Shown here: positions 1,250-61,327 of the stretch, in pieces
Position numbering within the stretch: position 1 is the stretch's first letter
How the letters are laid out: each line of letters starts with the position of its first letter
DNA from: Planctomycetota bacterium
GTDB lineage: Bacteria; Planctomycetota; Phycisphaerae; UBA1845; UTPLA1
Assembly: GCA_015654675.1 (NCBI GenBank)
Contig: JAATGM010000051.1
Coordinates: 1 to 64,000, forward strand
DNA length: 64,000 nucleotides
Direction of reading: 5' to 3'
The notes under the pieces: generated by a model
Database searches by the model: none
What the model was told of the DNA's origin: nothing
The model's input: the letters and a program-made list of their open reading frames with translations, nothing else
Program-made: the position numbers and the translations under genes

Positions 1250-1614
1250 GTGACCCAGCCCGCCGAACGCTGCGCTGCCCGACCTGCGATCGCGACACGC
1301 CCTGTCGCGAGACTGAAAGTGACCACAACATCATCGCCGCCATCCTGAATCTACCGCTCAAGCTCCTGGTGCTGCCGATCGCAATCGAGCTTGGATTCGA
1401 CCTTGTGGAACGCGCCGAGTGGGTGTCGAAGGAATTTGCCTGCCTCGCGTGTGGCGAAGTCTTTCGCGAGTGCTCATCCGAGCCGAAGCACCCGCACGCC
1501 TGCCCCGCCTGCGATTACAACCTCCGAGGCAACAAATCCGGCCGCTGCCCCGAATGCGGCCGGACCATCGCTCCTTCGATGAAAAGCTGGATCGATTCGC
1601 ACGGGCCTCGCTAA
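1246..1614 (+). CDS. Zinc-ribbon protein, planctomycete CxYxLxG/CPECG type
   Basis: 122 residues with three cysteine pairs or groups: C11/C14/C20, C66/C69 and C86/C89 with C101/C104. The last four form a classic ribbon, CPACDYNLRG followed by CPECG, a signature I associate with many small planctomycete proteins. A hydrophobic stretch around residues 33-52 could be a membrane segment, with the ribbons on either side. The ATG overlaps the preceding stop (ATGA), indicating an operon with the upstream unknown gene. Ligand spacing supports zinc binding; a nucleic-acid or protein partner cannot be named. The coding call is firm because the overlap and the cysteine pattern agree. Confidence 0.8.
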   Translation: MSDPARRTLRCPTCDRDTPCRETESDHNIIAAILNLPLKLLVLPIAIELGFDLVERAEWVSKEFACLACGEVFRECSSEPKHPHACPACDYNLRGNKSGRCPECGRTIAPSMKSWIDSHGPR

Positions 1615-1636: not shown

Positions 1637-1664
1637 TTGACTCGTCAGAACACAAACCTAACAT
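1637..1664 (+). promoter_or_regulatory. Sigma-70-like promoter heading element A
   Basis: TTGACT at 1637-1642, a 16-base spacer, then TAACAT at 1659-1664. It begins 23 bases after a gene stop, and no gene on the same strand follows within 2 kb. The same hexamers with the same spacing occur at 26367-26394, in front of a related intergenic element, which makes chance less likely. Confidence 0.5.
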
Positions 1665-1910
1665 CTGGGCGCGTCCAGCCATAGGAACGCCGGCATTACG
1701 GGCTGAGTCCGCGCGAATCCCGAGCTAAACGGGAGTCGCTCGTGTTCTGCCCGCATCGGCTGTGCTCTTTGTCAAACGAATAGACGTGCGACGATCAGTC
1801 GCGATCGAAGCGGAGTGCCCCGAATCTCAAGAATCTCACAAATCTCACTCCGCGTATCACTCGAAACGGCGATTTTCGGGCGGAAAACGCAATCGTCTCA
1901 CAAATCTCAC
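1665..1910 (+). repeat. Intergenic element, copy A (candidate small RNA)
   Basis: This is the body of the 375-base gap between the zinc-ribbon gene and the convergent PEP-CTERM gene. After the promoter-like head it holds a hairpin, TCCCG-7-CGGGA, at 1718-1734, followed by CGCTC. ATAGACGTGCGA lies near 1781, and three tandem 9-mers of the form AATCTCAxx occupy 1823-1849. A second hairpin CGATTTTC...GAAAACG lies at 1870-1889, and two more TCTCAC units at 1896-1910. The same order of blocks recurs at about 26.4-26.7 kb and, on the minus strand, at 60.96-60.54 kb. No convincing protein is encoded: the open frame across it changes composition and has no ribosome binding site. It could be a transcribed small RNA, a 3'-end regulatory element for the convergent gene, or a decayed mobile repeat. 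Confidence 0.55.
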
Positions 1911-26366: not shown

Positions 26367-26394
26367 TTGACTTACTCAGACAGCTACCTAACAT
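26367..26394 (+). promoter_or_regulatory. Sigma-70-like promoter heading element B
   Basis: TTGACT (26367-26372), 16 bases, TAACAT (26389-26394): the same two hexamers and spacing as at 1637-1664. No gene on this strand follows for more than 6 kb. Confidence 0.5.
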
Positions 26395-26680
26395 AAATCG
26401 AACTCGTCCGCCGAAAATCGCTTTCCGGGCGGAGCGAGCGGATCAATCTGCGTGCGCAAATTCCCGGTAGGTGGGGGAGCGCTGACTCCCCGCGCTCGCA
26501 AAATTTGATAGACGTGCGATCAGGTCAGCGCGCATCCCTTAGGAGATGAACGACTTGCAACTCGTCTCAAAAATCTCACGCAGCCGTCTCACCCGCGTCT
26601 CACGCCCGGAAGTCGCTGTCGACGGGAACCGCCGAGTCGAAAAGAGGTCAAATTCTCGAAAATCTCACCGCCCAAAGCTC
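26395..26680 (+). repeat. Intergenic element, copy B (candidate small RNA)
   Basis: Related to the elements at 1665-1910 (+) and 60545-60953 (-). It has a stem GGGGA/TCCCC at 26474-26491 in the place where the others carry TCCCG/CGGGA, then ATAGACGTGCGA near 26509, shared with copy A. The block at 26552-26604 (starting ACTTGCAAC and containing GTCTCAAAAATCTCA) is near-identical to 60780-60727 read on the minus strand. A further AAATCTCACC lies at 26661. It points toward the 3' end of the nucleotidyltransferase gene. The plus-strand open frame through it continues into the antisense of that gene and is not a credible protein. Confidence 0.55.
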
Positions 26681-26723
26681 AAGACCCAGGACTCGAGACT
26701 CAGGACTCTTCCCCCGCCGCCCC

Positions 26724-60484: not shown

Positions 60485-60544
60485 ATCGGCGGACCTGGGG
60501 CGGGTTGGGCTGAGACGGGCGGGGACATGGCAGGTGGGGACGTG

Positions 60545-60930
60545 GTGAGATCTGGCAGGTGAGATTCGTGAGATTTTACGGATTGCCCCCGTTTTTGGGG
60601 TGAAAACGAGGGTTGTTGCGTGAGATCGCTGAGATTTGCCATGGCGAGGCACGGGGGTACTCAGGCAGTCGCCGCGGCGACCAGGCTGCAGCACGAAGGG
60701 ACTGCGGTTGCGGGGCGGCACCGTTCGTGAGACGCGGTTGAGACGCCGCGATGAGATTTTTGAGACGCGTTGCAAGTGCAGGGCCTTTCGTTTCATGCGC
60801 GCGGGTTAGCGCGCGATGACGACGTTTTTTGCATTGGCGGAGTCTGAGCGGGTCCCGAATCAGACGGGATTTGCGCGGAATCCACCGGTTCGCCCCCCAG
60901 TCCTTGTTTCAGCGGGCGATGTTTGGTTAG
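60545..60930 (-). repeat. Intergenic element, copy C (candidate small RNA)
   Basis: Minus-strand relative of the elements at 1665-1910 and 26395-26680. Read on the minus strand it has TCCCG-7-CGGGA at 60869-60853 followed by CGCTC; the block 60780-60727 near-identical to 26552-26604; a second hairpin CGTTTTC...AAAACG at 60608-60590; and a total of nine TCTCA units between 60765 and 60546. It points toward the 3' end of the 58745-60484 gene. The long minus-strand open frame that spans it and continues antisense through that gene is rejected as a protein. Confidence 0.55.
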
Positions 60931-60959
60931 TGTTTAGTTAGCACACCTGGTGAAGTCAA
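60931..60959 (-). promoter_or_regulatory. Possible promoter heading element C
   Basis: Minus strand TTGACT (60959-60954), 17 bases, TAAACA (60936-60931). The -10 differs from that of copies A and B, but the -35 and the distance to the hairpin are alike. Confidence 0.4.
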
Positions 60960-60965
60960 GGAAGA

Positions 60966-61327
60966 AGATTTGTTGGGCGGTTGGCCGTTTGGGCGTGCGG
61001 TTGGGGCGGAACTCCTCGTTGGGGGCGAATGGGAAAATTGTGGGCTTTGCGAATTCGACCCTCTCCCGACCTCTCCCTATCCAGGGAGAGGAGCGGAGGG
61101 AATGGAGTTGCGAATTGTTGGGTCGTGGGGCTACCTGGGAATCATCGGGCGTCGCTGGTTGTTGTAGTGCTTCGCGACCGCTCGCTTGCGCTCGGGGTTC
61201 GGACTTGGTGGAGCGGTGCTTGCGGAGCACGCTCTTGTGGGCGGGTTGAGGATTGCGCGCATGGCTTTGGGGTTCTCGCTTCGCACTCGGCACCGTACCC
61301 GGGCTTGCGCCTCGGGCTCGGATTTTG
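60966..61327. repeat. Non-coding stretch with a strong hairpin and low-complexity motifs
   Basis: No gene. At 61070-61091 a 9-base perfect stem CCTCTCCCT/AGGGAGAGG with loop ATCC, a kind of dispersed hairpin seen in many bacterial genomes. From 61150 on, GCTCGCTTGCGCTCGG, GCTTGCGGAGCACGCTC and similar short inverted words recur, in the style of non-coding dispersed repeats. It lies just beyond the 3' end of the methyltransferase gene and could include its terminator. Confidence 0.5.

What the first reader, a model, noticed from the sequence alone, without database searches (positions are those of the whole stretch)
1637..1910. Three intergenic elements share a promoter head, hairpins and TCTCAC arrays (copy A)
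Copies at 1637-1910 (+), 26367-26680 (+) and 60959-60545 (-) each contain in the same order: TTGACT/TA(A)ACA(T) 16-17 bases apart, a short stem-loop 45-65 bases downstream, then tandem or scattered TCTCA units. Copies A and B share identical hexamers with identical spacing and ATAGACGTGCGA. In all three cases the element points at the 3' end of a convergent gene (PEP-CTERM peptide, nucleotidyltransferase, unknown tail-anchored protein). That placement suggests a family of small RNAs or antisense 3'-end elements rather than random repeats. No protein model fits.
Basis: partly seen in the sequence, partly recalled or inferred. Interest (0 to 1): 0.75.

Follow-up and report, generated by a model that had tools for sequence, protein, structure and literature searches.

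The report
Strand-locked repeated noncoding RNA elements
One bacterium carries about 57 copies of a previously unseen element that looks like an RNA gene with a ribosomal-RNA-like start signal; nearly all copies face the same way relative to the strand bias of the DNA and often sit where that bias begins, which hints at a link with where DNA copying starts.

Summary
The window holds four copies, not three. A covariance model of the 5' part finds 57 copies in the 4.93-Mb genome. None was found in 60 relatives, nor by the patterns scanned in GTDB, IMG/VR, plasmids or phages. Anatomy: promoter (TTGACT, then TAAACA or TAACAT), a hairpin, a nested hairpin with supported covariation, an rrn-type boxA in 36 of 53 copies, then predicted single-stranded T[C/A][T/C]CA units with a 9-nt period, on the sense strand. 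No protein fits. The genome's own rRNA leader has a similar boxA. The convergent-gene rule fails genome-wide: 30 of 52. Unexpected: 56 of 57 copies lie on the C-rich strand, opposite to most tRNAs. Strand skew is strong upstream of copies and weaker downstream (19 of 24 loci), often dropping within 1-6 kb. A relative has ordinary two-replichore skew. Best reading: a lineage-specific family of antiterminated noncoding RNA units, polarised against replication and possibly marking fork start sites. Transcription and any replication role are inferred.

The parts
1637..1642 (+). copy A: -35 hexamer TTGACT
   Evidence: conservation starts sharply at C-TTGACT across copies
1659..1664 (+). copy A: TAACAT, -10-like, 16 bases after TTGACT (class I promoter spacing)
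1648..1786 (+). copy A: conserved leader (direct-repeat head, P1 hairpin, nested P2/P3 hairpin)
   Evidence: covariance model R1, 77.7 bits
1767..1782 (+). copy A: degenerate boxA-like CTTTGTCAAACGAATA
1825..1909 (+). copy A: six TMYCA units (TCTCA/TATCA), mostly 9-nt period
26367..26394 (+). copy B: TTGACT-N16-TAACAT promoter
26389..26514 (+). copy B: leader, diverged, no boxA
   Evidence: R1 26.9 bits; R2 50.8 bits
26565..26667 (+). copy B: five TCTCA units
   Evidence: R1 68.4 bits; R2 91.0 bits
58508..58516 (-). copy D: boxA core CTTTGAAAA
58475..58479 (-). copy D: single TCTCA unit
60931..60959 (-). copy C: TTGACT-N17-TAAACA promoter (class II spacing)
60803..60935 (-). copy C: leader, no boxA
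   Evidence: R1 74.8 bits; fold
60511..60765 (-). copy C: ten TCTCA units in several 9-11-nt phased groups

Best explanation
A lineage-specific family of about 57 noncoding transcription units. Shown from sequence: a sigma70-like promoter; an RNA leader with a hairpin and a nested hairpin kept by compensatory changes; in two thirds of copies an rrn-type boxA placed after hairpins as in rRNA leaders; then phased, predicted single-stranded T[C/A][T/C]CA units on the sense strand; almost invariable orientation on the C-rich strand; position at or inside the start of strand-asymmetry domains. Inferred: RNA polymerase starts at the promoter, is made Rho-resistant by NusB-S10 at boxA, and transcribes the C-rich array and some downstream DNA; the phased units bind a protein (KH-type or Rho-like, unknown). 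Because G-rich is normally the leading strand, this RNA is made head-on to the fork, from the lagging-strand template. The most likely role is replication-linked: a long, antiterminated, C-rich RNA helps open or prime DNA a few kb downstream, so that forks leave in the upstream direction.
For: 57 copies. Promoter conservation with a sharp left edge. Covariation: 72 cells with changes on both sides against 27.7 +/- 5.7 in shuffles, 0/500, and slid controls lower (the alignment was fitted to the model). boxA with <=1 mismatch in 36 of 53; own rrn leader boxA GTTCTTTGACAAGTGAACA; published order boxB-like, boxA, linear boxC in rrn leaders (PMC6614801, passages). Units: TCTCA 102/111/67/40 per 100-nt bin against 2/2/2/2 reversed, 151 gaps of exactly 9; unpaired 0.72 against 0.656 with the surroundings shuffled, p=4e-4. 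Polarity 56 of 57 (p=8e-16) against tRNAs 9 of 30 on the C-rich strand (Fisher 3.6e-12). Asymmetry: upstream skew -0.194, downstream 5-17 kb -0.094, 19 of 24, p=3e-4; permutation p=7.5e-4. Same on third codon positions for sense and antisense genes separately, p=1.2e-3 and 1.5e-3. The stretch around copy C28:288371, fetched after the idea had formed, shows the step and decay.
Against: No transcript, no replication profile and no protein partner is known. 17 of 53 copies lack a recognisable boxA. Single-copy folds do not beat shuffles, and RNAalifold found no consensus on the first alignment. Several copies lie inside a skew domain with no step nearby (for example C25, C61, C62). Of nine upward skew jumps only five have a copy pointing at them from within 7 kb (p=0.023); two large ones (C28:43.5k, C25:10.5k) have none. 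Two strong DnaA-type ATPase genes are present, so ordinary oriC initiation probably exists. C>G composition extends far outside the copies, so it is not rut-specific.
Confidence: 0.5

Rival explanations
1. A non-autonomous mobile element that inserts only into the lagging-strand template (as IS200/IS605 or attC do), so that copies record fork direction; the promoter and boxA are cargo.
For: 56 of 57 on one strand; many diverged copies, intergenic; published lagging-strand targeting by IS608-type Y1 transposases (PMC6006769, passages).
Against: Conservation begins at the -35 hexamer, not at a transposon end; no fixed right end was seen; copies are diverged (nearest neighbour median 73%, closest pair 94%); does not explain why skew starts at copies.
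Confidence: 0.2
2. A large paralogous family of trans-acting or sponge small RNAs; the phased units titrate an RNA-binding protein and the strand bias is a by-product of where such genes survive.
For: Own promoters, structured leader, accessible repeated units.
Against: Does not predict 56 of 57 on the C-rich strand while tRNAs prefer the other, nor the up/down skew asymmetry.
Confidence: 0.2
3. Transcription barrier or Rho-dependent terminator modules at gene ends.
For: Tail-to-tail gaps are over-represented: 16 of 43 copies with both genes called against 7 of 64 control gaps; units are YC-rich and predicted unpaired.
Against: Most units carry their own promoter, and 36 of 53 an antitermination boxA; 22 of 52 downstream genes are co-directional; C>G is not specific to the tail.
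Confidence: 0.07
4. Low-complexity or chance repeats, or an assembly artefact.
For: TCTCA units are simple; the genome is in 62 contigs.
Against: Reversed-pattern controls 0-1; compensatory changes; copies diverge to a median 55% identity so reads would not collapse; the strong skew steps lie 1-6 kb from copies, not in them.
Confidence: 0.02

Closest known systems
rrn operon leader / nut site (boxB-boxA-boxC, NusB-S10, NusA, SuhB)
   Same: Promoter, hairpins, then boxA (CTTTGAAAAGTGAATA here, CTTTGACAAGTGAACA in this genome's rRNA leader), then a linear element
   Different: 57 dispersed copies, no rRNA downstream, other promoter sequence, phased TMYCA arrays, opposite strand preference
boxA-led CRISPR arrays (recalled; search listing only)
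   Same: Long untranslated transcript protected by boxA
   Different: No identical repeats with unique spacers; copies are separate loci
REP/BIME and IS200/IS605-type elements
   Same: Many intergenic copies; lagging-strand polarity
   Different: Promoter edge instead of a transposon end, boxA, no constant ends seen
Polar chromosome motifs (KOPS, Chi; recalled)
   Same: Orientation locked to replication direction
   Different: Structured transcription units of about 200-570 bases, tens of copies, on the C-rich strand
Human skew N-domains and R-loop-primed (rnhA) replication in E. coli
   Same: Abrupt upward skew jumps with gradual decline (PMC3320577, passages); transcription-primed origins (PMC4631800, abstract)
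   Different: Not described as a native bacterial arrangement in anything my ten searches showed; here tied to a defined element

Membership tests
rrn leader / nut site | boxA matching the organism's own rrn boxA | tested here: met
   36 of 53 copies within one mismatch of CTTTGAAAA; rrn boxA in L053
rrn leader / nut site | hairpin (boxB-like) before boxA | tested here: met
   nested hairpins with covariation
rrn leader / nut site | followed by rRNA | tested here: not met
   own 16S match lies on C44; R1 does not match the rrn leader locus L053; only a tRNA found in the window by Rfam
CRISPR array | identical repeats with unique spacers | tested here: not met
   units are 5-6 nt in a 9-nt period, variable
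IS200/IS605 or REP | conserved left and right ends with subterminal hairpins | tested here: not met
   left edge is the -35 hexamer; no constant right end by inspection
IS200/IS605 or REP | associated Y1 transposase gene | not tested
   no such search was run
Known Rfam RNA family | score above gathering threshold | tested here: not met
   window: one tRNA only; five copies with flanks: only sub-threshold matches, chiefly miRNA models
Rho utilisation site | C>G bubble with regular YC, termination | tested here: inconclusive
   YC units phased at 9 nt, but C>G also in flanks
Replication origin | fork direction changes there | tested here: inconclusive
   skew steps near many but not all copies
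Replication origin | measured initiation | not testable with these tools
   needs sequencing of growing cells

The most novel reading that the evidence does not exclude
This bacterium starts chromosome replication at many zones rather than one, and each zone is flagged by one or more copies of this RNA element: an antiterminated C-rich RNA, templated on the strand that becomes the lagging template, opens or primes DNA a few kb downstream and sends a fork back through the element. The skew domains are the mutational record of those forks, a bacterial counterpart of eukaryotic skew N-domains.
Probability: 0.22. Interest if true: 0.97.

Novelty: categorically new. Interest (0 to 1): 0.85.

Why it matters
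No family that I know of or found combines a promoter, covarying leader, rrn-type boxA and phased unpaired units in tens of strand-locked copies. If the link with skew domains is causal, it would be a native bacterial chromosome with several RNA-marked replication start zones, a question usually closed by the single-origin rule. Even if it is not, the copies give a ready set of natural boxA units to study antitermination outside rRNA, and the genome has an unusually strong, many-domain strand asymmetry that needs an explanation.

Tried and rejected
Simple DNA similarity recovers few full-length copies because copies are only about 55% alike. RNAalifold on the first alignment gave no structure, probably because P1 varies in length; a structure read by eye and tested by counting worked. 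Direction by convergent gene was tested and dropped (the first two gene callers were poor because codon usage differs by strand, so a two-class caller was used). The idea that transcription from the copies causes the skew was dropped: the skew lies mainly upstream of the promoter. A polar fork barrier was dropped because the sign is opposite if G-rich is leading. Inversions between copies were considered and thought unlikely because steps lie 1-6 kb away and decay is gradual. Common sequence at the skew steps: BLAST found mostly the elements themselves and another intergenic repeat. Viral hits were judged chance: L276 looks like coding DNA and the best of 57 loci scored E 0.018 with R1. The nine GTDB matches are single and in unrelated phyla; I judged them by title and did not score them with the model. 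The test of jump positions gave only p=0.023. The Wilcoxon line returned nan because of missing flanks; one search replaces it. Not counted: the R2 match at C20:164656 (E 0.87). For one search, 32 copies on the assembled contigs were reduced to 29 loci by merging neighbours under 5 kb, and 5 of the 29 were left out of the paired test for lack of flank.

Full report
OBSERVATION. The three copies are present as described. The window's own genome (G000, 4.93 Mb, 62 contigs, 96% complete) has 11 matches to TTGACT-N14..20-TAACAT and none to the reversed pattern. A covariance model (R1) from 14 copies (alignment A1) found 52 copies in the genome at E<=0.0018 and 53 in the fetched stretches. A model rebuilt from those 53 (R2) found 57 at E<=0.007 and one more at E 0.87 that I do not count. 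Four lie in the window: A, B, C and a fourth at 58626-58497 (-).

ANATOMY. Conservation starts sharply at C-TTGACT (information per 10 nt rises from 4.0 to 14.5 in 41 copies of class II). In class II (37 of 53 with exact TTGAC 22-24 nt before AAACA, plus one with two sites) the -10-like box is TAAACA; in class I (9 of 53, TTGAC at 11 nt) it is TAACAT one repeat further on; 6 of 53 have no exact TTGAC in range. The two boxes AAACA and AACAT, 12 nt apart, are kept in both classes. Then comes hairpin P1, a nested hairpin P2/P3 around TGCGCAA...CCCG...CGGG...GCGC, and boxA CTTTGAAAA (36 of 53 within one mismatch). On the 53-copy alignment 72 cells carry changes on both sides of a pair against 27.7 +/- 5.7 in shuffles (0 of 500), covariation score 0.258 against 0.150, and all slid versions are lower. 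This alignment was fitted to the model, so the counts lean towards it; on the unfitted 14-row alignment the same measure was 24 against 14.0 (1 of 500). Single folds were unremarkable.

TAIL. Within 400 nt after the leader, TCTCA occurs 102, 111, 67 and 40 times per 100-nt bin over 53 copies, its reverse complement 2, 2, 2 and 2; paired units occur on the sense strand only (49, 55, 25, 9 against 0). Spacing of exactly 9 nt occurs 151 times. Units are T[C/A][T/C]CA: TCTCA, TATCA, TCCCA. Recurrent modules include ATTATCACTTTTATCACC and GGACCGCCCCAAATCTCA. Predicted unpaired probability of units is 0.72, other tail positions 0.49, units with everything else shuffled 0.656 (p=4e-4). Longest sense ORFs: median 49 aa against 55 in shuffles, so noncoding.

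DISTRIBUTION. In 60 relatives the best R1 match was E 0.0057 over 57 bases. AATCTCANNAATCTCA occurs 62 times in the own genome and at most once in any of 60 relatives. IMG/VR (three patterns, scored), plasmids and phages gave nothing convincing. Rfam: only a tRNA in the window; sub-threshold matches only around five copies. So the family is restricted to this lineage as far as these searches reach.

rRNA LIKENESS. The own 16S leader has TTGACA-N17-TACAAT and boxA GTTCTTTGACAAGTGAACA. The copies share the boxA and the order hairpin, boxA, linear element described for rrn leaders (PMC6614801, passages; PMC10250234, passages), but not the promoter, and no rRNA follows. I therefore say that they work like an rrn/nut leader, not that they are one.

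GENE CONTEXT. With a two-class gene caller the upstream gene is co-directional in 31 of 44 and the downstream gene convergent in 30 of 52; both together in 16 of 43, against 7 of 64 control gaps of 250 nt or more. The caller is home-made and approximate.

STRAND POLARITY. GC skew of 3-kb flanks, read on the element's strand, is negative at 56 of 57 copies (median -0.175; exception C32:34722 at +0.02). tRNAs lie on the G-rich strand in 21 of 30 (30 of the 46 tRNAs had a locus), and rplB too. Genes overall are nearly balanced (371 on the G-rich strand, 339 on the C-rich strand). By the usual rule (G-rich = leading; recalled) the copies are transcribed head-on to forks. The skew shows at third codon positions whatever the gene orientation.

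SKEW DOMAINS. Fetched contigs show several strong domains, up to about +/-0.35, with abrupt rises and gradual decline. In C1 the DNA between a (+) copy at 31.9k and (-) copies at 82.5k and 84.1k has about zero skew, with strong opposite skews outside; C50 between 50.2k and 146.5k and C35 between 37.0k and 57.2k are similar. Skew steps with t>10 lie 1.0-5.8 kb downstream of copies. Across 24 loci mean sense-strand skew is -0.194 in the 12 kb upstream and -0.094 at 5-17 kb downstream; weaker downstream in 19 of 24, Wilcoxon p=3.2e-4; random skew-oriented positions reach the observed difference in 0.075% of 4000 trials. Third-position skew gives the same for sense (19 of 24, p=1.2e-3) and antisense genes (17 of 22, p=1.5e-3). 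The stretch around copy C28:288371 was fetched after the idea had formed: about -0.2 upstream, about +0.07 downstream, decay over 50 kb. Against: of nine upward jumps five have a copy pointing at them from within 7 kb (p=0.023), two large ones do not; and many copies sit inside domains. Relative G013, sampled at 20 places, has ordinary two-replichore skew, positive to 2.0 Mb and mostly negative after it, mostly below 0.1 in size.

MECHANISM. Shown: family, structure, boxA, unit phasing, strand lock, asymmetry. Inferred: transcription, antitermination, protein binding to units, replication role. In human chromosomes such upward skew jumps with linear decline are read as replication start zones (PMC3320577, passages), and in E. 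coli without RNase HI replication is thought to start at R-loops (PMC4631800, abstract). A head-on, antiterminated, C-rich RNA templated on the would-be lagging template could act that way. Two strong DnaA-type ATPase genes exist, so a normal origin is not excluded. The chief rival is a lagging-strand-inserting element; the promoter-edged left boundary and lack of a right end speak against it.

LITERATURE. Ten searches listed no paper on such elements; most subscription papers are not in that library.

Noticed in passing
genome G000, C45, C28, C50, C1, C62 (window: flips near 13, 19 and 41 kb): GC skew reaches about +/-0.35 in many domains with several origin-like sign changes, unlike the sampled relative G013.
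   Followed up: yes
genome G000, C10:32399-32881 (-) and C11:132319-132777 (+): Two genes with strong DnaA ATPase domains (195 and 180 bits).
   Followed up: no
window 61060-61130 (-) and inside copies on C41, C50:50k, C36:85k, C25:38k: A CTCTCCC...GGGAGAGG...GAGGGT-type repeat, also found inserted in some leaders, often just before boxA.
   Followed up: partly
window 26676-26710; copies on C41, C45:15k, C61:44k: GACCCAGGACTCAAGACTCAGGACTC-like simple arrays within or after several tails.
   Followed up: no
genome G000, C50:48058, C50:50019, C1:30757, C45:44-51k and 247-250k; window 1509-1559: Another dispersed repeat near several copies, revealed by BLAST around skew steps; its window match lies in the cysteine-rich end of the ORF at 1246-1614.
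   Followed up: no
tails of L103, L107, L126, L135: A second head-like motif (AAACGATGTACTAACA type) without TTGACT precedes a module ending in TCCCACGAATCCCAC.
   Followed up: no
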